A stretch of DNA of 64,000 nt from a virus. Positions within the stretch are counted from its first letter, which is position 1, and each line of letters opens with the position of its first letter. The DNA lies in the IMG/VR virus record IMGVR_UViG_3300032092_000005, positions 1 to 64,000 of that record; one strand, written 5' to 3'. A model generated the notes under the pieces. It had not been told where the DNA came from and ran no database searches. It saw nothing but the letters and a program-made list of their open reading frames with translations. Made by a program: the position numbers and the translations under genes. This document shows positions 35,650 to 54,496 of this stretch, one piece after another.

Positions 35650-35723
35650 TCCCGAGTAGTGTAGTGGTAACACACCAGACTTTGACTCTGTTATTGTAAG
35701 TTCGATTCTTACCTCGGGTGCCA
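35650..35723 (+). tRNA. tRNA-Gln (TTG)
   Basis: Acceptor CCCGAG/CTCGGG, anticodon loop CTTTGAC, T-loop TTCGATT, CCA encoded. First tRNA behind promoter F. Confidence 0.9.
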
Positions 35724-35724
35724 G

Positions 35725-35800
35725 TGGTGATATAGCACAGTGGAAGTGCAACTCCTTCATACGGAGTAGGTCGTTGGTTCGAATCCAACTATCACCACCA
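35725..35800 (+). tRNA. tRNA-Met or tRNA-Ile2 (CAT)
   Basis: Acceptor TGGTGAT/ATCACCA, anticodon loop TTCATAC, CCA encoded. One of three CAT tRNAs; elongator, initiator or lysidine-modified Ile cannot be settled from sequence alone. Confidence 0.88.
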
Positions 35801-35840
35801 TATAAAAACACATTCCTATTTTTAGTGTGTTTCTATATGG
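35798..35840 (+). repeat. tRNA-spacer hairpin 1
   Basis: CCATATAAAAACACA (from the CCA end of the upstream tRNA) pairs with TGTGTTTCTATATGG. Arms related to those of spacer hairpins at 36139, 39045 and 39327. Confidence 0.7.
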
Positions 35841-35869
35841 TTGACATGCAATCATTACCGTGTTACAAT
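35841..35869 (+). promoter_or_regulatory. Promoter upstream of the tRNA-Lys pair
   Basis: TTGACA (35841-35846), 17-base spacer, TACAAT (35864-35869). The -10 lies in the palindrome GTGTTACAATAACAC. Confidence 0.75.
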
Positions 35870-35896
35870 AACACATCAACAAAAAAAGGAAGCGAC

Positions 35897-35920
35897 ATGA
35901 AACGTTCAGGTAAACGATAG
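35897..35920 (+). CDS. Seven-residue Lys/Arg mini-ORF (possible leader peptide)
   Basis: ATG 35897 with an excellent ribosome site (AAAGGAAGCGAC) encodes MKRSGKR and a stop. Both Lys codons are AAA. It lies between a promoter and two tRNA-Lys genes and is followed by a hairpin, the layout of an attenuation leader. No other protein frame follows in this transcript. Speculative. Confidence 0.4.
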   Translation: MKRSGKR

Positions 35921-35958
35921 TGTCAACTTTTGATCCCATGTATGGTCTTAAGTTGGCA
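35921..35958 (+). promoter_or_regulatory. Hairpin whose loop is complementary to the tRNA-Lys junction
   Basis: TGTCAACTT (35921-35929) pairs with AAGTTGGCA (35950-35958). The loop carries GATCCCATGTATGGTC (35932-35947), the exact reverse complement of 36056-36071, the junction of the two tRNA-Lys genes. Confidence 0.6.
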
Positions 35959-35985
35959 CGTAAAAGAAAATTCAATACGTAACAA

Positions 35986-36060
35986 CCACTCTAAACTTTG
36001 GCGGTGAAGTCCTGCCTCTTAAGCAGCGAGAATTGAGTTCGAATCTCAAAGAGTGGACCA
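35986..36060 (+). tRNA. tRNA-Lys (CTT)
   Basis: Acceptor CCACTCT/AGAGTGG, anticodon loop CTCTTAA on a four-pair stem (CTGC/GCAG), T-arm TTGAG/CTCAA, CCA encoded. The anticodon arm is slightly irregular, so the aminoacylation identity is a little less certain than for its neighbour. Confidence 0.75.
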
Positions 36061-36065
36061 TACAT

Positions 36066-36141
36066 GGGATCGTGGTGAAATGGTTATCACAGCAGACTTT
36101 TAATCTGCCAGTTTCGGGTTCGAGTCCCGGCGGTCCTACCA
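36066..36141 (+). tRNA. tRNA-Lys (TTT)
   Basis: Acceptor GGGATCG/CGGTCCT, anticodon stem GCAGA/TCTGC with loop CTTTTAA, CCA encoded. Confidence 0.92.
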
Positions 36142-36226
36142 TATAAAAACACATTAAGCACCTCGTACGGTGTTAGGGAAGTTCATGCATGGCGACTCGG
36201 CGCAGGCTATAATGTGTTTCTATATG
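36139..36226 (+). repeat. tRNA-spacer hairpin 2 with 50-base insert
   Basis: Arms CCATATAAAAACACATTA and TAATGTGTTTCTATATGG join the CCA end of tRNA-Lys to the first base of tRNA-His. The enclosed segment contains a small AGCACC/GGTGTT hairpin but no tRNA or gene. Confidence 0.65.
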
Positions 36227-36300
36227 GTGACGTTAGTTTAGTGGCAAAACCGCGGGTTGTGATTCCGCTATCATGGGTTCGATTCCCATACGACACCCCA
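36226..36300 (+). tRNA. tRNA-His (GTG)
   Basis: Includes G-1 opposite C73, the His identity feature. Anticodon loop TTGTGAT, T-arm ATGGG/CCCAT, CCA encoded; one A-A mismatch in the acceptor. Confidence 0.92.
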
Positions 36301-36311
36301 AAGATTTTTAT

Positions 36312-36386
36312 GCCTCGTTAGCTCAGTGGTAGAGCAGTGCTTTTACACGGCGAAGGTCGGCAGTTCGAAACTGTCACGAGGTACCA
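36312..36386 (+). tRNA. tRNA-Val (TAC)
   Basis: Acceptor GCCTCGT/ACGAGGT, D-arm GCTC/GAGC, anticodon loop TTTACAC, CCA encoded. The anticodon stem is weak (two GT pairs, one mismatch). Confidence 0.9.
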
Positions 36387-36391
36387 ATAAT

Positions 36392-36467
36392 GCCAGGATA
36401 GCTCAGTTGGTAGAGCACTTGTTTGAAGCACAAGGTGTGGGCGGTTCGATCCCGTCTCCTGGTACCA
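36392..36467 (+). tRNA. tRNA-Phe (GAA)
   Basis: Acceptor GCCAGGA/TCCTGGT, anticodon stem CTTGT/ACAAG with loop TTGAAGC, CCA encoded. Confidence 0.94.
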
Positions 36468-36477
36468 GAAATGATAT

Positions 36478-36552
36478 GTGCCTTTAGTAAAATGGATATT
36501 ACACAACGCTACGAACGTTGGAGTGGGAGTTCGATTCTCTCAGGGCGCACCA
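36478..36552 (+). tRNA. tRNA-Arg (ACG)
   Basis: Acceptor GTGCCTT/AGGGCGC, anticodon stem CAACG/CGTTG with loop CTACGAA, CCA encoded. ACG needs A34 deamination to read all CGN codons. Confidence 0.92.
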
Positions 36553-36562
36553 AGAGATATAT

Positions 36563-36654
36563 GGAAGATGATGCAGCGGGGTTGGTCCTGCGACTGGCCT
36601 TGAAAACCAGGTTCTCAGAAATGGGATGGGGTTCGACTCCTCCGTCTTCCGCCA
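36563..36654 (+). tRNA. tRNA-Ser (TGA)
   Basis: Acceptor GGAAGAT/GTCTTCC, anticodon loop CTTGAAA, long variable arm, T-loop TTCGACT, G73, CCA encoded. Confidence 0.92.
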
Positions 36655-36655
36655 G

Positions 36656-36693
36656 TTGACAATGAAGCTTGATTGTGATACAATAGCTTCATT
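36656..36693 (+). promoter_or_regulatory. Promoter of the Y-RNA-like/Ro60 transcript, -10 inside a palindrome
   Basis: TTGACA (36656-36661), 17-base spacer, TACAAT (36679-36684). AATGAAGCT (36661-36669) and AGCTTCATT (36685-36693) flank the -10. Transcription would start just before Y-RNA-like element a. Confidence 0.78.
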
Positions 36694-36699
36694 GTAGAG

Positions 36700-36875
36700 T
36701 TTTAGGATAGGTACAGCAACCCACTAATACCGAATCGTTTAGTCACTGTGGTAAAAAACTGGAGTACGGAGTCTTGACCGAGTACGTTGAAGGTTTGACA
36801 CTGAAACATACTAAGCAAGGAGAGTTTCGATTTTCTCTCTGTAAACAAAAAGTAGACAACTATCCTGTTATATTT
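36700..36875 (+). ncRNA. Y-RNA-like element a
   Basis: TTTT, AGGATAG (36704-36710), bulge GTACAGCAA, a 140-base interior, AAAAAGTAGA, CTATCCT (36860-36866), GTTATATTT. The ends pair, leaving the conserved CAGCAA on the 5' side. The interior holds several hairpins, the last being T-arm-like (GAGAG...TTTCGA...CTCTC). First of three head-to-tail elements in front of the Ro60-like gene. Confidence 0.65.
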
Positions 36876-36880
36876 GAAAG

Positions 36881-37024
36881 TTTTAGGATCGGTACAGCAA
36901 CATTAATCTTTACTAAAAGATGGTTCGAGCTAGTTTAAGGCAATAACACCCTTATTTCTTGAACCCACGTGAGTTTCGAATTCTCACTCGAAAGAAAAAG
37001 TAGAAACCGATCCTGTTGTATTTT
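36881..37024 (+). ncRNA. Y-RNA-like element b
   Basis: TTTT, AGGATCGGT (36885-36893), bulge ACAGCAA, interior, AAAAAGTAGAA, ACCGATCCT (37006-37014), GTTGTATTTT. The 9-bp terminal stem is perfect. The interior has a D-arm-like segment (GTTTAAGGCAATAAC) and a T-arm-like hairpin (GTGAG...TTCGAA...CTCAC), with TTCGAG/CTCGAA able to pair around them. Confidence 0.68.
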
Positions 37025-37155
37025 AGGTTAAGTTCCGCAAAACAAAATATGCAAACATAAACCGAAAGTCTGGTTCGATTCCAGCTAGGGCACGTAGTGT
37101 CTTAGTAGTGTAATGGCAGCACATTGGTACGCAAAAAGTTTAACCTGTTGATTTG
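37021..37155 (+). ncRNA. Y-RNA-like element c with permuted tRNA mimic
   Basis: TTTT, AGGTTAA (37025-37031), bulge GTTCCGCAA, interior, TTAACCT (37140-37146), GTTGATTTG. The interior reads in the order T-arm (TCTGG-TTCGATT-CCAGC, 37069-37085), acceptor helix TAGGGCAC/GTGTCTTA closed by a GTA triloop (37086-37104), then a D-arm GTGT-AATGGCA-GCAC (37108-37122). This is a tRNA elbow with closed acceptor, opened at the anticodon end, which is how bacterial YrlA Y RNAs are described from memory. Ends 12 bases before the Ro60-like start codon. Confidence 0.75.
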
Positions 37156-37167
37156 AAAGGAAATATT

Positions 37168-38607
37168 ATGTCAACATTTGTAGAAGCCGTAGTAAACCAA
37201 GAAGCCCGTACTGCCAATGGCATGAAGGCACGTAAGTCCACTGCTAATGCGGTTGTAGATTTATTCTACAATGCAGGTGCAAGCCGTGGTAAGAATATTG
37301 TTCCTGCATTCGCAGCAGCATTTGCGCAAGACCGTGATCTAGCATTGCGCGTAGCCGCCTGGTTGCGTGATGTGCGTAGCGGTGCAGGTGAACGTCAATT
37401 GTTCCGTGATATCTTAGGGTATCTGGAAAACAATGATCGTGTAGCAGCAAAGGCACTTGTTGCAAAGGTTCCTGAATTGGGACGTTGGGATGACTTGTTC
37501 ATCTTCAATTCTAAGGAAATGAAGGAAGCAGCATACACATTGCTTGGTGACGCATTGCGTGAAAAGAATGGCCTTGCAGCTAAGTGGACACCTCGTCAAG
37601 GCAAGCTTGCAGCAGAAATTCGTACATTCTTCGGAATGTCGCCAAAGTTCTACCGCAAGTCTCTAGTTGAAATGACTAACGTTGTTGAAACTAACATGTG
37701 TGCAAAGGACTGGGACGGGATTAACTTCTCGCATGTTCCATCTGTAGCAGCATCGCGGTACAAGAAGGCATTCAACCGTAACACTCCAGCTTATGCAGCA
37801 TACGTTGCAGAGTTGATGAAGGATCCAAAAGATCGTACAGTTGAAGTGAAGGTTAATGCTGGTGCAGTGTACCCATATGATGTACTGAAAGGTCGCATCT
37901 CTGGTTATGGTGTGTCGTTTGACAAGACAGAATTGGATCTGATCCAAAAGCAATGGGAAGCACTACCTAACTTTGTTGGGGATGCAAACATTCTGCCTTT
38001 GGTTGACGTTTCTGGTTCTATGACTTGTCCAGCAGGTGGATCAGGCTCAAAGTCTAAGCTGACTTGCCTGGAAGTTGCAGTCTCTCTGGGATTGTATCTT
38101 GCAGACAAGAACAAGGGTAAGTTCAAGGATACGTTCTTGACTTTTTCTAACAAGCCAGAGTTGATGACTTTGAAGGGCAACATCAATGAGAAGATCAGCC
38201 AAATGGTTTCTTCTGATTGGGGAATGACTACTGACTTGAATCGTGCGTTTGACAAAATCCTTAGTGTAGCAATTAAGGGCAATGTGCCAAACAGTGAAAT
38301 GCCAGAAATGTTGCTGATCCTTTCGGACATGCAATTCAATTCTTGTGTTGCACATGACGATTCGGCTATCGAAATGATGGCACGTAAGTACGAAGCAGCA
38401 GGATACGCCTTACCAAAGGTTGTGTTCTGGAACTTGAATGCTGCATACGGCAATGCGCCTGTGAAGTTTGACAAGTCTGGCACTGCATTGGTTTCGGGGT
38501 TCTCTCCAGCCATTGTTAAGCCTCTGCTATCTGGCGACATGGAAGACTTTTCACCAGAGGCTGTGATGTTGAAGACAATCATGGATGACCGTTATACTGT
38601 GATTTAA
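37168..38607 (+). CDS. Ro60/TROVE-like RNA-binding protein with vWA domain (DUF2828 type)
   Basis: 479 residues from ATG 37168 (AAAGGAAA ribosome site). The N-terminal two-thirds are helical repeats with LRVAAWLRDVRSGAGERQLF and VPELGRWDDLF, the shared signature of TROVE and DUF2828 proteins. The C-terminal vWA domain has a full metal site: DVSGS (280-284), Thr near 354 and Asp387. Ro60 proteins are RNA-binding rings that hold Y RNAs and misfolded RNAs and work with exonucleases. Three Y-RNA-like elements directly precede the gene and three lie further along the tRNA cluster. Confidence 0.85.
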   Translation: MSTFVEAVVNQEARTANGMKARKSTANAVVDLFYNAGASRGKNIVPAFAAAFAQDRDLALRVAAWLRDVRSGAGERQLFRDILGYLENNDRVAAKALVAKVPELGRWDDLFIFNSKEMKEAAYTLLGDALREKNGLAAKWTPRQGKLAAEIRTFFGMSPKFYRKSLVEMTNVVETNMCAKDWDGINFSHVPSVAASRYKKAFNRNTPAYAAYVAELMKDPKDRTVEVKVNAGAVYPYDVLKGRISGYGVSFDKTELDLIQKQWEALPNFVGDANILPLVDVSGSMTCPAGGSGSKSKLTCLEVAVSLGLYLADKNKGKFKDTFLTFSNKPELMTLKGNINEKISQMVSSDWGMTTDLNRAFDKILSVAIKGNVPNSEMPEMLLILSDMQFNSCVAHDDSAIEMMARKYEAAGYALPKVVFWNLNAAYGNAPVKFDKSGTALVSGFSPAIVKPLLSGDMEDFSPEAVMLKTIMDDRYTVI

Positions 38608-38644
38608 AAATCTAAGTATAACTCCGAGGATTCGAAAGAGTCCT

Positions 38645-38679
38645 CATTTTGAAGTGTGCTGATAGTGCATTTCAAAATG
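38645..38679 (+). terminator. Long hairpin after the Ro60-like gene
   Basis: CATTTTGAA (38645-38653) and TTCAAAATG (38671-38679) form a perfect 9-bp stem extended by four weaker pairs. There is no T-tract; it may be a processing or 3'-stability hairpin that separates the mRNA from the next tRNA rather than a terminator. Confidence 0.5.
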
Positions 38680-38687
38680 AAAAATAA

Positions 38688-38775
38688 GGAAGACTCCCAT
38701 AATGGTATTGGAGCGGCTTGCTAAGCCGTCGGTCGTTAAATCGGCTTCGGGGTTCGAGTCCCCGGTCTTCCGCCA
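38688..38775 (+). tRNA. tRNA-Ser (GCT)
   Basis: Acceptor GGAAGAC/GTCTTCC, anticodon stem GCGGC/GCCGT with loop TTGCTAA, long variable arm, G73, CCA encoded. Confidence 0.92.
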
Positions 38776-38851
38776 TACACAATGTACGCTATAATGTACA
38801 TTAACAGTGGTTTTTGTTCATAATGGGCGTTTTTATGCCTCTTATGACAGT

Positions 38852-38911
38852 GTTGTATTTTTGCAACAGACACAAAAAAAGTGTTGACAAATCTTCTGAT
38901 CCTGTTATACT
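38852..38911 (+). promoter_or_regulatory. Promoter module G of the second tRNA block
   Basis: GTTGTATTTTTGCAAC (38852-38867), 16-base gap, TTGACA (38884-38889), 16-base spacer, TATACT (38906-38911). Same architecture as the early protein promoters. Confidence 0.82.
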
Positions 38912-38923
38912 AGATTCTGTTGA

Positions 38924-38959
38924 GTTGATAGTGATTCAACAAAAGTTCTTTAAAAAGTT
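38924..38959 (+). promoter_or_regulatory. Second boxB/boxA-like leader
   Basis: Hairpin GTTGA-TAGTGA-TTCAAC (38924-38940) then GTTCTTTAAAAAGTT (38945-38959), a degenerate boxA. Weaker than the copy at 35599 but at the same place relative to promoter and first tRNA. Confidence 0.5.
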
Positions 38960-38972
38960 AAGTGTGATTTTT

Positions 38973-39047
38973 GCTCAGTTCGACTATCGGTCAGGTCGCT
39001 AGACTTTCAATCTGGAAAGACGGGTTCGACTCCCGTACTGAGCACCA
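38973..39047 (+). tRNA. tRNA-Glu (TTC)
   Basis: Acceptor GCTCAGT/ACTGAGC, anticodon loop CTTTCAA, T-arm ACGGG/CCCGT, CCA encoded. Confidence 0.92.
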
Positions 39048-39157
39048 TATTAAAGCATATTTCAGGTTGGGCTAGATTCGCGGTTTAGCTATTTGGGTAT
39101 CATGGACTAGGTAATTACTAGCACCGGTACTAAGATACGAAATGTGTTTTAATATGG
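39045..39157 (+). repeat. tRNA-spacer hairpin 3 with about 75-base insert
   Basis: CCATATTAAAGCATATTTC, starting in the CCA of tRNA-Glu, pairs with GAAATGTGTTTTAATATGG (three mismatches). The insert contains a CTAG/CTAG hairpin and no gene. Confidence 0.6.
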
Positions 39158-39163
39158 TAGTTT

Positions 39164-39240
39164 GCCCTGGTGACGGAATTGGTATACGTACTGGTCTTAG
39201 AAACCAGGTTTTGCGAGTTCGAGTCTCGCCTAGGGCACCA
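39164..39240 (+). tRNA. tRNA-Leu (TAG) with short variable loop
   Basis: Acceptor GCCCTGG/CTAGGGC, anticodon stem CTGGT/ACCAG with loop CTTAGAA, Leu-type D-arm (GGAATTGGTA). The variable region is only GTTTT (5 bases) where tRNA-Leu normally has a long arm. CCA encoded. Confidence 0.88.
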
Positions 39241-39252
39241 AAAGTATTTTAT

Positions 39253-39329
39253 GCGTCTGTAATTCAATTGGACAGAAATTCAGTCTTCGAAACTGAAAGT
39301 TGGGAGTTCGAATCTCTCTAGACGCACCA
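39253..39329 (+). tRNA. tRNA-Arg (TCG)
   Basis: Acceptor GCGTCTG/TAGACGC, anticodon stem TCAGT/ACTGA with loop CTTCGAA, CCA encoded. Confidence 0.92.
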
Positions 39330-39425
39330 AATTAAAACATACTGCTTGCCTGACTGCAAAAGTCGTGGTAAACTACAAGAGAAAGAGGTTCGAATCCTCG
39401 GGACTGGTAGTGTGTTTTAATTTGG
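39327..39425 (+). ncRNA. tRNA-spacer hairpin 4 enclosing a tRNA-like cloverleaf
   Basis: Arms CCAAATTAAAACATACT (39327-39343) and AGTGTGTTTTAATTTGG (39409-39425) pair. Inside are three short hairpins, GACT/AGTC, GTGG/CTAC and a true T-arm (GAGG-TTCGAAT-CCTC). It resembles a decayed or reduced tRNA with an over-long acceptor. No usable anticodon loop is seen, so it is not called a tRNA. Confidence 0.5.
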
Positions 39426-39498
39426 GCTGATGGTATAATTGGGAACACAGTGGCCTTGCAAGTCACAGTTGGGGGTTCGATTCCCCCTCGGTCCACCA
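39424..39498 (+). tRNA. tRNA-Ala (TGC)
   Basis: Acceptor GGGCTGA/TCGGTCC, anticodon stem GTGGC/GTCAC with loop CTTGCAA, T-arm GGGGG/CCCCC, CCA encoded. Its first two bases are also part of the spacer arm. Confidence 0.92.
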
Positions 39499-39695
39499 AA
39501 TCTCGTTACTACTTTCGTTAAAGTAGCGTTTGATTAGCGATAGAGATCCGGTGGCAGAAAACCGTTAGCGAGGTCAAACTCAGGCTCTGATAGGCAGAAT
39601 CTCAACTGCACACAGACACACAGAATAAATGGAGATGGACAGAGTAACTGCTCAATTAAGGGCTGGCGTAGAACCCAGTAGCTTATCCTATTTAA
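39499..39695 (+). ncRNA. Structured non-coding segment of unknown type
   Basis: About 195 bases without a tRNA or protein gene but dense in hairpins: ATCTC...GAGAT around CTACTTT-CGTT-AAAGTAG; CGGT/ACCG; GCAG/CTGC; GGG/CCC. Between two tRNAs, so it would be released by tRNA processing. It does not carry the CAGCAA signature of the Y-RNA-like elements. No family recognised. Confidence 0.4.
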
Positions 39696-39770
39696 GGCTC
39701 GTTCATATAATGGTCATTATCGCGGATTGTCTATCCGTAGATGGGAGTTCGATTCTCCCACGAGTCGCCA
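39696..39770 (+). tRNA. tRNA-Asp (GTC)
   Basis: Acceptor GGCTCGT/ACGAGTC, anticodon stem GCGGA/TCCGT with loop TTGTCTA, G73, CCA encoded. Confidence 0.92.
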
Positions 39771-39778
39771 GTTTTAAT

Positions 39779-39852
39779 CCTCCGTTAGCTCAATGGTAGA
39801 GCAATCGGCTGATAACCGATAGACAGAAGTTCAATTCTTCTACAGAGGACCA
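39779..39852 (+). tRNA. tRNA-Ile (GAT)
   Basis: Acceptor CCTCCGT/ACAGAGG with one mismatch, anticodon stem ATCGG/CCGAT with loop CTGATAA, CCA encoded. Confidence 0.9.
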
Positions 39853-39863
39853 AAAAGTATTTC

Positions 39864-39947
39864 GGAGTGAATGGAACAATGGTGTTCTAGCCGGCTGTAA
39901 CCCGGTGGCCTTCGGGCAGGTAGGTTCGATCCCTACTCACTCCACCA
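39864..39947 (+). tRNA. tRNA-Tyr (GTA)
   Basis: Acceptor GGAGTGA/TCACTCC, anticodon stem GCCGG/CCGGT with loop CTGTAAC, medium variable arm, CCA encoded. Confidence 0.92.
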
Positions 39948-39949
39948 GA

Positions 39950-40020
39950 TTTTAGAATGCGTTCAGCAAAAAAATACATTGAACTTTTAATTCAAACCGT
40001 AAAAAAGCATTCTGTTGTTT
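39950..40020 (+). ncRNA. Y-RNA-like element d (short)
   Basis: TTTT, AGAATGC (39954-39960), bulge GTTCAGCAA, inner hairpin TTGAA/TTCAA, AAAAA, GCATTCT (40007-40013), GTTGTTT. The closing stem differs in sequence from the other copies but still pairs perfectly, evidence for selection on structure. Begins two bases after the CCA of tRNA-Tyr. Confidence 0.68.
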
Positions 40021-40038
40021 ACATATATAATACGTTGT

Positions 40039-40114
40039 GTACGTGTGCGCCGAACGGCTAGGTAGCGGATTGCAAATCCGTATAATGCAGGTTCGAATCC
40101 TGTCACGTACTCCA
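40039..40114 (+). tRNA. tRNA-Cys (GCA)
   Basis: Acceptor GTACGTG/CACGTAC, anticodon loop TTGCAAA, T73, CCA encoded. A TATAAT at 40026 just upstream has no good -35. Confidence 0.92.
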
Positions 40115-40128
40115 CACAAAAGATTTAT

Positions 40129-40207
40129 TCCGTAGAACCCGAGCATGGTGCATGGGCTTGACTGTTAATCAATGTTTAGCTGGGATCGTTACCCAGATAC
40201 GGAGCCA
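40129..40207 (+). tRNA. tRNA-Asn (GTT), divergent
   Basis: Acceptor TCCGTA/TACGGA, anticodon stem TTGA/TCAA with loop CTGTTAA, T-stem CTGGG/CCCAG. The T-loop ATCGTTA and the D-arm are unusual. G73, CCA encoded. Confidence 0.78.
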
Positions 40208-40217
40208 AAAGTTATAT

Positions 40218-40293
40218 TGCGGGTAGTGCCCAGTCAACAGTCCAGTCTCATAAGCTCGGATCATCGGAGGTGCGAATCCTTCACCCGCAACCA
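40218..40293 (+). tRNA. tRNA-Met or tRNA-Ile2 (CAT), divergent
   Basis: Acceptor TGCGGGT/ACCCGCA, anticodon loop CTCATAA, T-loop TGCGAAT (lacks the usual T55, like the tmRNA at 54141). The D-arm is irregular. A73, CCA encoded. T1-A72 pairing and the absence of three GC pairs argue against an initiator. Confidence 0.75.
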
Positions 40294-40294
40294 G

Positions 40295-40362
40295 TTTTAG
40301 GATCAGTTCAGCAAACTTAAAAATTTCTCTTGTTCGGAAAAAAAGTTGATCCTGTTGTTTTT
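40295..40362 (+). ncRNA. Y-RNA-like element e (short)
   Basis: TTTT, AGGATCA (40299-40305), bulge GTTCAGCAA, ACTT...AAGT as a second helix, TGATCCT (40347-40353), GTTGTTTTT. Lies exactly between the CCA of tRNA-Met (40293) and the first base of tRNA-Thr (40364), so tRNA maturation alone would release it as a roughly 70-base RNA. Confidence 0.7.
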
Positions 40363-40363
40363 C

Positions 40364-40437
40364 GCCCTATTAGTATAATGGTATTACACCTGTTTTGTAA
40401 TCAGGTTACGGCAGTTCGATTCTGTCATGGGGCACCA
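40364..40437 (+). tRNA. tRNA-Thr (TGT)
   Basis: Acceptor GCCCTAT/ATGGGGC, anticodon stem CCTG/CAGG with loop TTTGTAA, CCA encoded. Confidence 0.92.
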
Positions 40438-40447
40438 AGTCATTTTT

Positions 40448-40521
40448 GCGGGGTTCATTTAATGGTAGGATTTCAGCCTTCCAAGCTGATAGTGCGAGTT
40501 CGATTCTCGCACCCCGCTCCA
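40448..40521 (+). tRNA. tRNA-Gly (TCC)
   Basis: Acceptor GCGGGGT/ACCCCGC, anticodon stem TCAGC/GCTGA with loop CTTCCAA, T73, CCA encoded. Confidence 0.93.
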
Positions 40522-40528
40522 ATATTTT

Positions 40529-40602
40529 CTCGGTGTGGTGAAATGGTATCACTCTTGGTTTGGGACCAAGGAGCGCAAGTTCGATTCTTGCCACCGAGAC
40601 CA
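40529..40602 (+). tRNA. tRNA-Pro (TGG)
   Basis: Acceptor CTCGGTG/CACCGAG, anticodon stem CTTGG/CCAAG with loop TTTGGGA, A73, CCA encoded. Confidence 0.93.
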
Positions 40603-40606
40603 CAAG

Positions 40607-40679
40607 TTTTAGGATAGTTACAGCAAAAAACAAAGCTAACTATTGGTTGTCTAGCGACAAAAGCTATCCTGTTGTTTAA
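40607..40679 (+). ncRNA. Y-RNA-like element f (short)
   Basis: TTTT, AGGATAG (40611-40617), bulge TTACAGCAA, inner hairpin GCTA/TAGC, CTATCCT (40664-40670), GTTGTTTAA. Follows the CCA of tRNA-Pro by four bases and ends ten bases before the HNH gene. Confidence 0.68.
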
Positions 40680-40688
40680 TGAGGCTAT

Positions 40689-41234
40689 ATGAAAAAATGT
40701 CCAAAGTGTAATAGTACACATGAAAAAAATGGAAATTTTTGTTCCAGAAAGTGTGGTAATTCTAGGACATGGTCTGAAGAAGATAAGAAAAAAAAATCAG
40801 ATTCTGCTAAAAAATACTACGATGAAAATGTCCACCCAGGATTAGGAAAACCTGGATGGAAACATAGTGATGAACAGAAATTACTCAAAAAGAAATTGTC
40901 TCTTGAAATGTGGGATAAAATTGGTAGAAAATCGTCTGAGCATTATAGACTTGCAAATATTCACACAGTAAACAAATACAGAGCAAGAAGGTATGATGCT
41001 ATAACCGAATCTACAGACTTAAATCTAATTAAAGAGATTTATAAGTACTGTCCTAAAGGTTATGAAGTTGACCATATAATAGCTCTTGCATGTGAAGGCG
41101 AACATCATCAAGATAATTTACAATACCTTCCAGCAATAGAAAATAGAAAGAAAAACAAAACACAAAATTATAACAAGGATCTTGCCGTTCGTTGGCAAGA
41201 TGTATTAAAAATAAGTACAAGGAGTTCACTATGA
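40689..41234 (+). CDS. HNH homing-type endonuclease
   Basis: An N-terminal zinc finger (CPKCNSTHEKNGNFCSRKC, residues 4-22) precedes a helical DNA-binding region and an HNH domain: GYEVDHIIALACEGEHHQ then NLQYLPAIENRKKN. Such genes are mobile in T4-like phages and cut intron-less or gene-less alleles. Its insertion in the tRNA array suggests it may have moved tRNAs or the neighbouring gene. No weak-start signs. Confidence 0.82.
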   Translation: MKKCPKCNSTHEKNGNFCSRKCGNSRTWSEEDKKKKSDSAKKYYDENVHPGLGKPGWKHSDEQKLLKKKLSLEMWDKIGRKSSEHYRLANIHTVNKYRARRYDAITESTDLNLIKEIYKYCPKGYEVDHIIALACEGEHHQDNLQYLPAIENRKKNKTQNYNKDLAVRWQDVLKISTRSSL

Positions 41235-41476
41235 GTAATGACGAAAAAGGTTCTAAGGCAAGACCGTTCAGCGTGTCTCAGCATGAATATGATACAAGAT
41301 GGGATGCAATTTTCGCAAGAGAATTGCAAGAAAAAGCACTTGATGAATTAGTTCGTGAAAGCGAACGATTAGGACTTTATGATATTCCTATTGTAGAAAA
41401 AGATTTTATAAATGCTAATACAATTTTAGAAATGCCCGGAACAATCGGTAGCGCAAAAGTTATTCTAAAAGGTTAA
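41231..41476 (+). CDS. Small conserved phage protein
   Basis: 81 residues from ATG 41231 (AAGGAGTTCACT), overlapping the HNH stop. GSKARPFSVSQHEYDTRWD followed by AIF is a short pattern widespread in phages. Function unknown. Confidence 0.6.
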   Translation: MSNDEKGSKARPFSVSQHEYDTRWDAIFARELQEKALDELVRESERLGLYDIPIVEKDFINANTILEMPGTIGSAKVILKG

Positions 41477-41477
41477 T

Positions 41478-42236
41478 ATGAGAATTGTGATTGTAACGGG
41501 CGGCTTTGATCCACTTCATAGTGGACATGTTGCTTACATTAAAGCAGCTAGAGAACTAGGCGACAAATTGATTGTCGGTATAAACTCTGATGAATGGCTA
41601 TCGCGCAAAAAGGGGCGTCCCTTTATGTCGTGGCAAGAACGTGCAACTATCGTTTCAGCTATCGCAGAGGTTGACAGAGTTATCTGTTTTAATGATGGTG
41701 ACAATACTGCAATTGATGCAATTCGAAAAGCTAAAAAGATTTTTCCTAATCATGATATCATCTTTGCAAATGGCGGTGACAGGACAAAAGAAAATATACC
41801 CGAAATGGTATTTGATGATGTAGAGTTTGTGTTCAGCGTTGGCGGTGATAACAAAGCGAATTCTTCTAGTTGGATTTTAGAAGAATGGAAAACACCTAAG
41901 ACAGAACGGACATGGGGTTACTATCGTGTACTGCATGAAGTCGGTTCACAGGTTAAACTAAAAGAGTTGACGGTAATGCCTAAAACATGTTTGAGTATGC
42001 AGAGACATGATCAACGTGCAGAGTTCTGGTTTGTAGCTGAAGGAGAAGCCACGGTGTACACCTTGAATGAAGCTTCAACTGATCAAGAAGTTAAATGTCA
42101 ATTAATTGCACATGAGCATACATTTATCAAAACAAACGAATGGCATCAATTATGTAATGAAACTACAGAGCCTTTAAAGCTCATTGAAATTCAATACGGC
42201 AAAGCTTGTATTGAAGAAGACATAGAACGGTTATAA
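41478..42236 (+). CDS. Nucleotidyltransferase-cupin fusion
   Basis: Residues 1-135: GGFDPLHSGHVAYI (HxGH) and a later SSSWIL segment match HldE/RfaE-type adenylyltransferases for sugar phosphates. Residues about 145-252: HEVGSQVKLKELTVMP, LSMQRHDQRAEFWFVAEG and HQLCN match the cupin of mannose-6-phosphate isomerases. The fusion suggests activation and isomerisation or epimerisation of a sugar. Placed among tRNAs, away from the sugar cassette at 54 kb with which it may cooperate. Confidence 0.75.
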   Translation: MRIVIVTGGFDPLHSGHVAYIKAARELGDKLIVGINSDEWLSRKKGRPFMSWQERATIVSAIAEVDRVICFNDGDNTAIDAIRKAKKIFPNHDIIFANGGDRTKENIPEMVFDDVEFVFSVGGDNKANSSSWILEEWKTPKTERTWGYYRVLHEVGSQVKLKELTVMPKTCLSMQRHDQRAEFWFVAEGEATVYTLNEASTDQEVKCQLIAHEHTFIKTNEWHQLCNETTEPLKLIEIQYGKACIEEDIERL

Positions 42237-42239
42237 TAT

Positions 42240-42313
42240 ATCTCGCTAGTGTAACGGCAGCATACGGGTCTCCAAAACCCTTGGTGGGAGTTCGAATCTC
42301 TCGCGGGATGCCA
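42240..42313 (+). tRNA. tRNA-Trp (CCA)
   Basis: Acceptor ATCTCGC/GCGGGAT, anticodon loop CTCCAAA, G73, CCA encoded. Confidence 0.92.
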
Positions 42314-42319
42314 AATTTT

Positions 42320-42393
42320 GCGTGGTTAGTTAAATGGTAGAACCAAACGTTGCCAACGTTTAGACAGGAGTTCGATTCTCCTACCCCGCACCA
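42320..42393 (+). tRNA. tRNA-Gly (GCC)
   Basis: Acceptor GCGTGGT/ACCCCGC with one mismatch, anticodon stem AAACG/CGTTT with loop TTGCCAA, CCA encoded. Confidence 0.92.
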
Positions 42394-42404
42394 AAAACTC
42401 ACAC

Positions 42405-42433
42405 TTGACAGAGTATCACTATGATGATACAAT
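42405..42433 (+). promoter_or_regulatory. Promoter of the last tRNA group
   Basis: TTGACA (42405-42410), 17-base spacer, TACAAT (42428-42433). GTATC / GATAC inverted repeat spans the spacer. Confidence 0.75.
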
Positions 42434-42448
42434 AGTCTATCAAATATT

Positions 42449-42523
42449 CTGGCGTTAGTACAATGGATAGTACAGTAGGCTTCTACCCTTCTAATGGGAG
42501 TTCGATTCTCTCACGCCGGACCA
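42449..42523 (+). tRNA. tRNA-Arg (TCT)
   Basis: Acceptor CTGGCGT/ACGCCGG, anticodon loop CTTCTAC, T-loop TTCGATT, CCA encoded. Reads AGA/AGG. Confidence 0.9.
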
Positions 42524-42530
42524 AAAATAT

Positions 42531-42616
42531 GCGAGTGTGGTGGAACGGTATACACAACAGACTTAAAATCTGTCGCCTTAACGGGCTTGCGGGTTCGAAT
42601 CCCGCCTCTCGCACCA
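42531..42616 (+). tRNA. tRNA-Leu (TAA)
   Basis: Acceptor GCGAGTG/CTCTCGC, anticodon loop CTTAAAA, normal long variable arm (GCCTTAACGGGC), CCA encoded. Contrast with the short-armed Leu tRNA at 39164. Confidence 0.92.
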
Positions 42617-42624
42617 AGTTTAGT

Positions 42625-42699
42625 GCCTTGGTAGCTTAATGGTAAAGCAGGCGACTCATAATCGCTTGAGTGGGAGTTCAATTCTCTCCCAAGGCACCA
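42625..42699 (+). tRNA. tRNA-Met or tRNA-Ile2 (CAT)
   Basis: Acceptor GCCTTGG/CCAAGGC, anticodon stem GGCGA/TCGCT with loop CTCATAA, CCA encoded. Last tRNA of the region. Confidence 0.9.
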
Positions 42700-44761: not shown

Positions 44762-45781
44762 ATGAGAAAATTAGCTACTATTCGAAAGATTGATGCATTG
44801 AATCCTATTGAGGGTGCTGATGCTATTGAATGCGCAACCGTAGGTGGTTGGAAAGTTGTTGTTAAGAAAGGTGAATACAATGTAGGAGACCGTGTTGTCT
44901 ACTGCGAGATTGACTCATGGATTCCTACTGAGTTAGCACCATTCCTATCAAAGGGAAAAGAACCTCGAGAATTCGAAGGCATCAAAGGTGAACGTCTTCG
45001 TACCATCAAGCTGCGCGGTCAGTTGTCACAAGGTTTGCTGTTGCCGTGGACTGTAGGAGGCGGCGTGCTGGACATGGCGCAGATGTTTGCAGGCGAAGGC
45101 GATGATGTATCGGAACTGCTTGGTATTGTGAAGTGGGAAATGCCCATGAATGCACAACTTGCGGGCATGGCACGTGGTAACTTTCCATCTGCAATTCCTA
45201 AGACTGACCAAGAACGTGCGCAAAATCTTGTTGGAGAAATTCTTGCTGCTGCACAAGCTGGTACTCAATTTGAGATTACCGAAAAGCTTGAAGGCTCTTC
45301 AATGACTTGCTACTTGATTGATGGAGAATTTGGTGTTTGCTCACGTAACCTCGACTTGAAGGAAACTGAAGGCAATGCATTCTGGCAAGTTGCGCGGCGT
45401 GATGACATTGAGGCAAAAATGCGTATCGGCCGAAATTTTGCTATTCAAGGCGAGTTGATTGGTCCTGGCATTCAAGGTAATATCTACAAACTACGTGAAC
45501 CAGAGTTCCGTGTGTTTGATGTATACAATATTCAAGGTGGTTGCTATTTGGATCCAGCTGACCGGCGTGAGTTGATTGAGAGCATGGGACTGAAACATGT
45601 TCCTGTTATGTACGTTGACAAGGATCTTGGTGTTGGCTCTGTAGAAGAAATTCTGCAATGGGCTGAAGGTGCATCAAAGCTGAACGAAAAGCAAGAACGT
45701 GAAGGTATCGTATTTAAGGAAGTGAATGGCGGTATGTCATTCAAGGCTATTTCAAATAAGTATCTGCTAGGAGAAAAGTAA
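44762..45781 (+). CDS. RNA ligase (Deinococcus DraRnl / Rnl5 type)
   Basis: 339 residues. An N-terminal OB-like domain (VGGWKVVVKKGEYNVGDRVV) precedes a nucleotidyltransferase domain: motif I EKLEGSS with lysine K175 as AMP acceptor, motif III-like FDVYN, motif IV EGIVFK and motif V FKAISNKYLL. The N-terminal OB plus ligase order is that of DraRnl, which seals 3'-OH/5'-P RNA nicks. Phage RNA ligases repair host-cleaved tRNAs, which fits the tRNA array and Ro60-like gene nearby. Confidence 0.85.
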   Translation: MRKLATIRKIDALNPIEGADAIECATVGGWKVVVKKGEYNVGDRVVYCEIDSWIPTELAPFLSKGKEPREFEGIKGERLRTIKLRGQLSQGLLLPWTVGGGVLDMAQMFAGEGDDVSELLGIVKWEMPMNAQLAGMARGNFPSAIPKTDQERAQNLVGEILAAAQAGTQFEITEKLEGSSMTCYLIDGEFGVCSRNLDLKETEGNAFWQVARRDDIEAKMRIGRNFAIQGELIGPGIQGNIYKLREPEFRVFDVYNIQGGCYLDPADRRELIESMGLKHVPVMYVDKDLGVGSVEEILQWAEGASKLNEKQEREGIVFKEVNGGMSFKAISNKYLLGEK

Positions 45782-54100: not shown

Positions 54101-54165
54101 TATAGTTGTATGAAGCAAAGAGAAACAGGTTCTGGACGGGGGTGCGAATCCCCCCACCTCCACCA
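54101..54165 (+). ncRNA. ssrA: tmRNA acceptor piece (3' half, encoded first)
   Basis: T-arm GGGGG-TGCGAAT-CCCCC followed by acceptor strand CACCTCC, A and an encoded CCA (54163-54165), preceded by GGTTCTGGAC as in the E. coli tmRNA 3' end. CACCTCC pairs fully with GGGGGTG at 54307-54313, the 5' end of the coding piece. 5' boundary estimated from the promoter. Confidence 0.88.
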
Positions 54166-54176
54166 AAAGTAAATAT

Positions 54177-54305
54177 ATGATTGATAAACCATTACCACCA
54201 GCAACAAAGTATTGGTGTGACTCATGCGGAACTTTAGAAAGTCCAGATAAACACAAAAATATTTTTTGTAAGTTGTTTAAATGGTTAGATAGTGTTTTCT
54301 TTTGA
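54177..54305 (+). CDS. Small Cys-containing ORF in the tmRNA intervening segment
   Basis: 42 residues, ATG 54177 to TGA 54305. PATKYWCDSCGTLESPDKHK, then IFC; three Cys could bind zinc. It fills the spacer between the two tmRNA pieces exactly. No good ribosome site, so it may be chance. Confidence 0.35.
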   Translation: MIDKPLPPATKYWCDSCGTLESPDKHKNIFCKLFKWLDSVFF

Positions 54306-54306
54306 T

Positions 54307-54470
54307 GGGGGTGCATAGTTTCGACAGGGCAAAGAGTAACAGAGTGGACAACTCACCAGAGTAGGTGTAAAAACTAAATCAAAGTAAACGCAAACGACTC
54401 ACAGTTCGCATTAGCAGCCTAAACGCCGCTTAGGGTTTCGATAGCTTTCCTCGTAACAGAATAAGCTATC
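54307..54470 (+). ncRNA. ssrA: tmRNA coding piece (5' half with proteolysis tag)
   Basis: Begins GGGGGTGCATAGTTTCGACA, the tmRNA 5' end with its acceptor strand and TTCGAC motif. GTAAACGCAAACGAC is the resume region; codons 54390-54422 encode ANDSQFALAA and TAA. CCTAA/TTAGG follows as helix 5, and GATAGCTT (54440-54447)/AAGCTATC (54463-54470) ends the piece. The tag's ALAA end is the ClpXP/ClpAP signal. Confidence 0.92.
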
Positions 54471-54496
54471 ACTTTTATTAACATGGAGATATACAT

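What the first reader, a model, noticed from the sequence alone, without database searches (positions are those of the whole stretch)
36700..38607. Phage Ro60/TROVE-like gene preceded by three head-to-tail Y-RNA-like elements
Elements a, b and c share TTTT-AGGNTNN, a 5' bulge ending CAGCAA (CCGCAA in c), AAAAAG and NNANCCT-GTT. The closing stems differ in sequence between copies but always pair (AGGATAG/CTATCCT, AGGATCGGT/ACCGATCCT, AGGTTAA/TTAACCT), which is covariation in the raw sequence. They lie directly before a TROVE/vWA gene with an intact metal site. Known Ro60 proteins hold Y RNAs whose ends pair into a stem; a phage Ro system with an array of such RNAs inside a tRNA cluster would be new to me.
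Basis: partly seen in the sequence, partly recalled or inferred. Interest (0 to 1): 0.95.

Follow-up and report, generated by a model that had tools for sequence, protein, structure and literature searches.

The report
Phage Ro-like protein with tRNA-mimic RNAs
A large phage carries a relative of the Ro60 protein together with six small RNA genes that share one conserved handle but carry swappable heads copying pieces of transfer RNA, and the same arrangement recurs in phages of many bacteria, which suggests an unrecognised phage RNA-protein machine that displays fake tRNA parts.

Summary
The window has six elements (a-f) with one handle: a 7-bp closing helix, NNNCAGCAA on the 5' side, A-rich on the 3' side. 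The helix covaries strongly: 183 of 198 anchored elements pair at all four variable positions, against 21±4 after shuffling. The gene encodes a DUF2828/DUF7788 protein whose predicted fold matches the TROVE domain and Deinococcus Rsr, with an intact vWA metal site. Gene-independent searches show co-occurrence: 65 of 81 contigs with a paired element encode the protein, against 2 of 39 without. The handle also flanks this gene in E. coli, mycobacterial, Listeria, Enterococcus, Campylobacter, Bacillus, rhizobial and cyanobacterial phages. The heads mimic tRNA: circularly permuted tRNA (c; YrlA-like), tRNA lacking its acceptor stem, or a bare anticodon stem-loop whose loop equals a real tRNA's (d = Lys UUU). 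Best reading: a phage Ro ribonucleoprotein with modular Y-RNA-like tRNA mimics, perhaps decoys or tethers for tRNA-acting enzymes. Binding, expression and function are inferred. Phage Ro proteins and YrlA-type RNAs were known; the common handle, the arrays and the anticodon-loop heads appear new.

The parts
37168..38607 (+). DUF2828/DUF7788 protein, 479 aa: predicted TROVE (HEAT-like helical) + vWA Ro60-like protein with intact MIDAS
   Evidence: Pfam DUF7788 2.6e-46, DUF2828 2.8e-20; phrog_850 'RNA-binding protein' 1.9e-138; AF2 pLDDT 78.7; Foldseek 9kop Trove domain E 7e-9, 2nvo Rsr E 9e-8; MIDAS residues invariant in 40 relatives
36704..36866 (+). element a (163 nt): handle AGGATAG...CTATCCT, GTACAGCAA; type I head with a T-arm-like hairpin GAGAGTTTCGATTTTCTCTC
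   Evidence: sequence; homologous type I elements before the gene in other contigs
36885..37014 (+). element b (130 nt): handle AGGATCGGT...ACCGATCCT; type I head with conserved T-arm-like GTGAGTTTCGAATTCTCAC
   Evidence: alignment A5 of 16 relatives and consensus fold
37025..37146 (+). element c (122 nt): handle AGGTTAA...TTAACCT, TTCCGCAA; circularly permuted tRNA head: T-arm 37070-37084, acceptor 3' strand 37087-37093, GTA loop, acceptor 5' strand 37097-37103, D-arm 37106-37122, then TTGGT able to pair with ACCGA upstream
   Evidence: alignments A2/A3; RNAalifold recovers outer stem, T-stem, acceptor hairpin and D-stem, 16/21 pairs with compensatory changes
39954..40013 (+). element d (60 nt): handle AGAATGC...GCATTCT; head is an anticodon stem-loop TTGAA-CTTTTAA-TTCAA (Lys UUU loop), starting 6 nt behind tRNA-Tyr
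   Evidence: CM R1 (trained without the window) 64.3 bits, E 1e-13; tRNA distance
40299..40353 (+). element e (55 nt): handle AGGATCA...TGATCCT; 5-bp/7-nt hairpin TTTCT-CTTGTTC-GGAAA (degenerate anticodon-loop-like)
   Evidence: CM R1 50.4 bits, E 3.2e-10; follows the CCA of a tRNA-Met not called by ARAGORN
40611..40670 (+). element f (60 nt): handle AGGATAG...CTATCCT; head GCTAACTATTGGTTGTCTAGCGAC (recurrent class, possible pseudoknot, identity unknown), 8 nt behind tRNA-Pro
   Evidence: CM R1 40.7 bits, E 9e-8; same head class in many contigs
36656..36684 (+). extended -10 sigma70-like promoter TTGACA-17-TACAAT directly before element a
   Evidence: 11 of 12 consensus matches, TG before the -10; a consensus match only
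35650..42699 (+). tRNA cluster in which the elements and the gene are embedded (25 tRNAs called)
   Evidence: ARAGORN, Rfam
44762..45781 (+). RNA ligase of the DRB0094 (Deinococcus Rnl) family, possible functional partner in tRNA repair
   Evidence: TIGR02306 1.2e-57, above cut-off; phrog_968 RNA ligase 7e-95

Best explanation
The locus encodes a phage Ro-type ribonucleoprotein. The DUF2828/DUF7788 protein is a TROVE + vWA ring-like protein (predicted fold). It recognises a common RNA handle made of the 7-bp closing helix and its internal loop with CAGCAA (inferred from covariation and strict co-occurrence). The RNAs are released from the tRNA-cluster transcript, partly by cleavage of the tRNA directly in front of them (inferred from their position 5-6 nt behind tRNA 3' ends). 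Beyond the handle each RNA carries a swappable head that copies part of a tRNA: a permuted tRNA body, a tRNA without its acceptor stem, or a bare anticodon stem-loop (shown by sequence and covariation). The most likely job is to present fake tRNA surfaces on a stable protein scaffold, so that enzymes acting on tRNA (host anticodon nucleases and other RNases, or repair and modification enzymes) are captured or tethered. That would protect or repair the phage and host tRNA pool during infection (inferred). Rough odds: phage Ro RNP with handle RNAs about 0.8; tRNA mimicry as the purpose of the heads about 0.75; decoy or tether for tRNA-cleaving or tRNA-repair enzymes about 0.4.
For: Fold: AF2 model matches 9kop 'Trove domain' (E 7e-9, TM 0.56) and D. 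radiodurans Rsr 2nvo (E 9e-8); MIDAS invariant. Handle: unbiased covariation 183/198 versus 21±4; anticodon-loop class: covariation score 0.624 versus 0.141±0.022 shuffled, all slid controls at most 0.101. Association: 65/81 contigs with a paired element encode the protein versus 2/39 chance pattern hits; all 137 elements are on the strand of the gene; 70/76 gene loci have one within 600 bp upstream, and in those loci 181 elements lie on the gene's strand and none on the other. Generality: finder hits within 1.5 kb of the gene are 37-fold enriched in 15 isolate phages and 70-fold in 12 MAG/SAG contigs, including E. coli phage Bas63, Mycobacterium, Listeria, Enterococcus, Campylobacter, Bacillus and Sinorhizobium phages; a Synechococcus phage element is found by the model. 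Heads: permuted tRNA with 16/21 compensatory pairs and YrlA model hits at Enterococcus and Mycobacterium phage elements (47.8 and 39.8 bits; alignment); anticodon loops in 16/87 non-redundant short elements versus 1.0±0.9 shuffled, loops being Lys UUU, Thr UGU, Ser UGA, Arg UCU, Asn GUU, Cys GCA, Tyr GUA, Met CAU and others. Position: 73/150 short elements start within 15 nt of a tRNA 3' end, mostly 5-6 nt.
Against: No expression or binding data. The protein does not match Pfam TROVE by sequence, and no PDB chain is found by profile search. The handle differs from that of Rfam YrlA and no element reaches an Rfam threshold. The strict finder finds no handle element near the gene in 7 of 15 isolate loci (SEP9 and Synechococcus have model hits). 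The heads of class f and of the 190-260-nt class are not explained as tRNA mimics. In Listeria phage CKA15 the hyper-expressed non-coding regions near the Ro-like gene (CKA15_059-061) are not the handle elements (PMC12282133). No defence system or nuclease target has been linked to the heads.
Confidence: 0.72

Rival explanations
1. The elements are cis-acting leader structures: the Ro-like protein binds the handle in its own mRNA leader (and in the tRNA operon) to control translation, stability or processing, and the tRNA-like heads only aid folding or processing by RNase P/Z.
For: 70/76 loci have an element within 600 bp upstream of the gene; element c ends about 20 nt before the start codon; 73/150 short elements sit within 15 nt behind a tRNA, mostly 5-6 nt.
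Against: Many elements are 1.5 to >4 kb away from the gene among tRNAs, several lie downstream of the gene (L206, L207, L216, L227), and the heads are diverse yet keep functional tRNA features such as anticodon loops, which a mere leader would not need.
Confidence: 0.13
2. The Ro RNP is a tRNA-repair or surveillance scaffold, not a decoy: it holds cleaved or misfolded tRNAs for the phage RNA ligase, and the heads compete with or gate tRNA access, as Y RNAs are thought to do for Ro60.
For: RNA ligase of the DRB0094 family in the window; RNA ligase two genes before the gene in Munch; RtcB and RNA ligase in the same region of Listeria phages; Ro-like, RNA ligase and PNK genes are all toxic when overexpressed from LeBron (PMC13148394); bacterial rsr/Y RNA genes lie in RNA repair operons (PMC7790460, PMC8394870).
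Against: The ligase is not next to the gene in most loci read; anticodon-loop heads specific for many tRNA identities are not needed for a simple gate.
Confidence: 0.3
3. The elements are RNA stability or processing units of phage tRNA operons that merely travel in the same phage lineages as the DUF2828 gene, without contact to it.
For: Both often sit in tRNA clusters; no binding data exist.
Against: The association holds across unrelated phages of several host groups, including loci in which no tRNA is annotated within the stretch read (Mycobacterium phages L207, L216), with 37- to 70-fold enrichment next to the gene.
Confidence: 0.08
4. The elements are decayed tRNA genes or mobile DNA repeats.
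For: They contain tRNA-like pieces and occur in several copies.
Against: Closing helices covary, acceptor/T/D stems covary in permuted order, strand bias is total, copies differ in sequence, and no direct-repeat or transposase context was seen in the loci read.
Confidence: 0.02

Closest known systems
Bacterial Ro60 (Rsr) with YrlA Y RNA (Deinococcus, Salmonella; Rfam RF02553)
   Same: TROVE + vWA fold by structure comparison; RNAs whose 5' and 3' ends pair; permuted T-arm/acceptor/D-arm tRNA-like head in c and relatives; RNAs encoded next to the protein; RNA ligase in the neighbourhood.
   Different: Protein is DUF2828/DUF7788, not detected by the TROVE model; handle is a 7-bp helix plus CAGCAA/A-rich loop instead of the YrlA handle; several RNAs per genome; heads also include bare anticodon stem-loops and tRNAs lacking the acceptor stem; encoded by phages.
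Mycobacteriophage 'Ro-like RNA binding protein' and reported mycobacteriophage Y RNAs (Chen et al. 2014 as cited in PMC12282133)
   Same: Homologous protein; JoeDirt has a permuted-tRNA element just downstream (L216:7528-7649).
   Different: Here six elements, arrays in tRNA clusters, non-YrlA heads; I could not read Chen 2014, so which RNAs it listed in phages was not checked.
Listeria phage CKA15 abundant non-coding RNAs near an Rsr-like gene (PMC12282133)
   Same: Same protein family; three handle elements directly before CKA15_055 (L209 6058-6322); protein found in purified virions.
   Different: The abundant RNAs named there (CKA15_059-061) are other sequences about 1 kb upstream.
Phage tRNAs that evade anticodon nucleases (PMC10264068, PMC11555353)
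   Same: Phage-made RNAs carrying anticodon loops in tRNA clusters.
   Different: Those are whole tRNAs; these lack an acceptor stem or any tRNA body and carry a conserved handle.
Circularly permuted tRNA genes (PMC3978253)
   Same: Order T-arm, acceptor, D-arm.
   Different: No sign of splicing to a mature tRNA; acceptor strands are closed by a short loop, usually without CCA; ends are locked in the handle.

Membership tests
Ro60/TROVE protein | Match to Pfam TROVE (PF05731) by sequence | tested here: not met
   No match in the own genome while the control genome Deinobacterium rang; Pfam gives DUF2828 + DUF7788
Ro60/TROVE protein | Helical-repeat TROVE domain followed by a vWA domain (fold) | tested here: met
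   AF2 model; Foldseek best hits 9kop and 2nvo, probability 1.0 over about the whole length, TM 0.56 and 0.38
Ro60/TROVE protein | MIDAS metal site DxSxS...T...D | tested here: met
   D280, S282, S284, T355, D387 invariant in 40 relatives
Ro60/TROVE protein | Binds Y RNA and 3' ends of misfolded RNA | not testable with these tools
   needs binding assay or CLIP
Bacterial Y RNA (YrlA, RF02553) | 5' and 3' ends pair into a stem adjoining an internal loop | tested here: met
Bacterial Y RNA (YrlA, RF02553) | tRNA-like head with T, acceptor and D arms in permuted order | tested here: met
   met for element c and 20 relatives; not seen in a, b, d, e, f
Bacterial Y RNA (YrlA, RF02553) | Rfam curated score | tested here: not met
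   best 47.8 bits against 69 (L212); element c no hit at E <= 10
Bacterial Y RNA (YrlA, RF02553) | The YrlA handle sequence | tested here: not met
   In the RF02553 alignment head columns match but the closing strands do not, and the CAGCAA handle is outside the YrlA pattern
Bacterial Y RNA (YrlA, RF02553) | Encoded next to a Ro-family gene | tested here: met
Bacterial Y RNA (YrlA, RF02553) | Stable RNA bound by the Ro protein | not testable with these tools
   no expression or binding data held
tRNA | Cloverleaf with acceptor stem and CCA end | tested here: not met
   ARAGORN and the Rfam tRNA model call none of a-f

The most novel reading that the evidence does not exclude
Phages carry evolving libraries of handle-bearing mini-RNAs that display individual anticodon stem-loops (Lys UUU, Thr UGU, Ser UGA, Arg UCU, Asn GUU, Tyr GUA and others) and other tRNA parts on a Ro-like protein, as baits that soak up or sense host anticodon nucleases: an RNA-based counter-defence whose target range is set by swapping heads.
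Probability: 0.35. Interest if true: 0.95.

Novelty: new variant of a known kind. Interest (0 to 1): 0.87.

Why it matters
Ro60 and Y RNAs are conserved from bacteria to humans, yet what the changeable end of a Y RNA is for remains largely open. Here a single protein family, found in hundreds of phage records, is paired in the loci examined with RNAs that keep one handle and swap heads, and many heads can be read by eye as a particular tRNA's anticodon loop. That makes the tether-or-decoy question testable in laboratory phages of E. coli K-12 (Felixounavirus, e.g. Bas63) and ties the unexplained tRNA clusters of large phages to a protein-RNA machine. It may also explain one family of unannotated sequence in those clusters and give DUF2828 an RNA partner.

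Tried and rejected
(1) Rfam at curated and relaxed thresholds on the window: no family at a-f. YrlA hits at 42561-42674, 36271-36335 and 39727-39829 are cross-hits over neighbouring tRNAs (3' part of one tRNA plus 5' part of the next), which fits YrlA being a permuted tRNA. (2) Pfam TROVE in the own genome: none; sequence search of the PDB: none. (3) The idea that the highly expressed CKA15_059-061 RNAs are the handle RNAs: rejected by coordinates. (4) A loose inverted-repeat scan of isolate loci gave many coding-region chance hits; replaced by a strict finder with an enrichment control. (5) A first chance test of anticodon loops used a faulty end filter, redone; there the Lys UUU loop shows no matching tRNA only because of how my script located TTT. 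(6) Exceptions with elements but no gene: the two large contigs carry the elements within about 4 kb of a contig end, most others are short fragments; no DUF7788 by profile in seven of them, so these stay open. (7) attC-like, transposon and terminator readings were considered and set aside on sequence grounds.
Full report
WHAT WAS CHECKED. The three elements a (36704-36866), b (36885-37014) and c (37025-37146) are in the sequence exactly as described, on the + strand between a tRNA-Ser(UGA) at about 36563-36650 (missed by ARAGORN; the Rfam tRNA-Sec model scores it 35.3 bits, below cut-off) and the gene 37168-38607. The window is part of a 152,320-base virus record. A good extended -10 promoter match (11/12) lies directly before a. 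Three further elements with the same ends are in the tRNA cluster: d 39954-40013, e 40299-40353 and f 40611-40670. A covariance model built from 24 short elements of other contigs, none from the window, finds d, e and f at E = 1e-13, 3.2e-10 and 9.1e-8 with all filters off.

THE HANDLE. Across 340 distinct elements in related contigs the common part is a 7-bp closing helix AGG-NNNN / NNNN-CCT, 1-5 nt, then C(A/C)GCAA on the 5' side and an A-run on the 3' side, usually with TTTT before and GTT after. To avoid circularity I anchored elements on the invariant ends only, without using the pairing. Of 198 non-redundant elements, 183 pair at all four variable positions, against 21.1±4.2 (maximum 42 of 1000) when partners are shuffled; 26 different arms occur and the inner two pairs use all four Watson-Crick types. 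On the anticodon-loop class, helix and head hairpin give a covariation score of 0.624 against 0.141±0.022 for shuffles and at most 0.101 for slid partners (these members had been picked by their pairing, so one search is the unbiased test).

THE PROTEIN. It is Pfam DUF2828 + DUF7788, phrog_850 'RNA-binding protein', with relatives in 682 phage records. The Pfam TROVE model does not see it and profile search of PDB sequences finds nothing. The AlphaFold2 model from 40 window and contig sequences (pLDDT 78.7, pTM 0.69) has as its only two significant PDB matches the 'Trove domain' 9kop (E 7e-9, TM 0.56/0.57) and Deinococcus Rsr 2nvo (E 9e-8). The metal-site residues D280, S282, S284, T355 and D387 are invariant in the 40 sequences. 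So it is a Ro/TROVE-fold protein by structure, not by the sequence family.

ASSOCIATION OF RNA AND PROTEIN. Of 81 that hold a properly closed element, 54 encode the protein in the same stretch and 11 more elsewhere on the contig. Of 39 chance hits without a closed element only 2 do, and looser criteria found closed elements in both. The 16 contigs with elements but no gene are mostly short; the two large ones (114 and 211 kb) have the elements close to a contig end. All 137 elements measured lie on the strand of the gene. In the 80 gene-found loci 181 elements are on the strand of the gene and none on the other, and 70 of 76 loci have one within 600 bp upstream.

OTHER PHAGES. The motif was learned on one group, yet the strict finder, with a different closing sequence each time, finds elements next to the gene in E. 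coli phage Bas63 (four), Mycobacterium phages Nicholasp3 and JoeDirt, Listeria P61/cka15 (three each), Enterococcus PEF1, Campylobacter CP39, Sinorhizobium phiM12 and Bacillus PJN02. The covariance model adds a Synechococcus phage and MAG contigs. Within 1.5 kb of the gene on its strand the finder's hits are 37 times denser than elsewhere in 15 isolate loci (17 in 45 kb against 3 in 345 kb) and 70 times denser in 12 MAG/SAG contigs (7 in 30 kb against 0 in 150 kb) (phiM12's main element lies further off, at 2.5 kb). The strict finder found no near element in seven isolate loci (Synechococcus BUCT-ZZ01, Ahp1, DLP6, Munch, nt-1, SEP9, Ci1), though the model adds the Synechococcus phage and weak SEP9 hits.

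THE HEADS MIMIC tRNA. (i) Permuted tRNA: c and at least 23 non-redundant relatives have a T-arm (GGTTCGANTCC), then both acceptor strands as one closed hairpin, then a D-arm (TAGCTCAATGGTAGAGC). RNAalifold on 21 sequences of this class, including c, Bas63, PEF1, phiM12 and JoeDirt, returns outer stem, T-stem, acceptor hairpin and D-stem unprompted, with compensatory changes in 16 of 21 pairs. Several keep an anticodon stem-loop before the T-arm, for example Arg UCU in L026 and Phe GAA in L179. This is the head of YrlA RNA: the Rfam model scores PEF1 and JoeDirt elements at 47.8 and 39.8 bits, below its cut-off of 69, and the alignment shows head agreement but a different handle. A review states that YrlA carries D, T and acceptor arms and that its basal stem tethers Rsr while the head binds PNPase (PMC8394870). 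(ii) About 97-nt elements hold D-arm, anticodon arm and T-arm with the acceptor stem replaced by the handle (L006, L011, L146); L228 from a distant MAG contig appears to be another. (iii) The commonest class (150 of 340) is 45-70 nt. In 69 of these the head is a 5-bp hairpin with a 7-nt loop of anticodon-loop form, nearly always the loop of a real tRNA: Lys UUU 17, Thr UGU 15, Ser UGA 8, Arg UCU 6, Asn GUU 4, Cys GCA 3, Tyr GUA 3, Met CAU 3, Ser GGA 2 and single others. After removing redundancy, 16 of 87 carry such a loop against 1.0±0.9 (maximum 4 in 300) for dinucleotide shuffles. Campylobacter CP39 and Mycobacterium JoeDirt have their own, Ser GCU and Thr GGU like. In the window d is Lys UUU. 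(iv) a and b belong to a type with a conserved T-arm-like hairpin GTGAGTTTCGATTTCTCAC. The head of f and the 190-260-nt class remain unexplained.

POSITION. 73 of 150 short elements begin within 15 nt of the 3' end of a tRNA, 48 of them exactly 5 nt behind it, so cleavage at the tRNA end would give their 5' ends; this step is inferred.

HOW IT PROBABLY WORKS. Shown here: a TROVE-fold protein gene (predicted structure), a covarying handle, strict co-occurrence and tRNA-mimicking heads. Inferred: the protein binds the handle, the RNAs are stable, and the heads present tRNA surfaces. For the last step two readings are close: decoy or tether for tRNA-cleaving enzymes, or scaffold of tRNA surveillance and repair. 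The window has an RNA ligase of the DRB0094 family, Munch has an RNA ligase just before the gene and Listeria phages have RtcB and RNA ligase nearby, which suits either. Anticodon nucleases are known antiphage effectors and phage tRNAs are known to evade them (PMC10264068, PMC11555353, PMC11042736, PMC12409363; abstracts), which favours a role for anticodon-loop heads there, but nothing here tests it.

WHAT IS KNOWN AND WHAT IS NEW. Known: phage Ro/TROVE proteins (PMC7824862, PMC7765460, mycobacteriophage annotations), Y RNAs in mycobacteriophages (Chen 2014 as cited in PMC12282133; not readable here), and the suggestion of Y RNAs beside an Rsr-like gene in Listeria phage CKA15, whose Ro-like protein is found in virions (PMC12282133). 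The abundant RNAs named there are not the handle elements. Apparently new, within the papers I could search: the common CAGCAA handle of DUF2828-linked RNAs across phages, arrays with several head types, and Y-RNA-like RNAs whose head is a single anticodon stem-loop. I therefore call it a new variant of a known kind, and do not file the RNAs as YrlA members because the Rfam score and handle tests failed.

Noticed in passing
window 35800-35843, 36139-36226, 39045-39158, 39328-39424: A second class of unannotated inserts in the tRNA cluster, closed by 14-17-bp A/T-rich stems of consensus AAAACAYA...TRTGTTTT; the one at 39328-39424 holds a Cys(GCA)-like anticodon loop (GACTGCAAAAGTC) and a T-arm.
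   Followed up: no
window 54052-54477: A phage-encoded tmRNA that matches both the permuted and the betaproteobacterial tmRNA models; the Synechococcus phage BUCT-ZZ01 locus L201 1737-2137 has one too and Enterococcus PEF1 has an ordinary tmRNA.
   Followed up: no
window 36563-36650, ~40130-40210, ~40220-40295: Three tRNAs missed by ARAGORN: Ser(UGA), Asn(GUU) and Met(CAU), read by eye from sequence.
   Followed up: partly
window 39499-39695: About 190 nt of non-coding sequence of unknown nature between tRNA-Ala and tRNA-Asp.
   Followed up: no
window 40611-40670; L001-L200: Recurrent head class GCTAAC...GTCTAGCGAC with two mutually exclusive or pseudoknotted pairings (GTC-TAGC-GAC and GCTA with TAGC), kept in divergent copies (CGCTAA...GTCTTAGCGGAC); what it mimics is unknown.
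   Followed up: partly
L007:1141-1348, L064:3686-3921, L076:3690-3918: Handle elements of 190-260 nt (AGGATGG / AGGATGA) before the gene with a large structured insert and a T-arm-like hairpin near the 3' end; not resolved.
   Followed up: partly
L209:4913-5223 (Listeria phage cka15 OR088597.1): The loci CKA15_059-061, two of which take up about 67% of phage transcripts late in infection (PMC12282133), carry no handle element; a different abundant phage non-coding RNA of unknown function.
   Followed up: partly
L213:3332-3459 (Sinorhizobium phage phiM12): A handle element whose permuted tRNA-like head even keeps a CCA after the acceptor strand.
   Followed up: no
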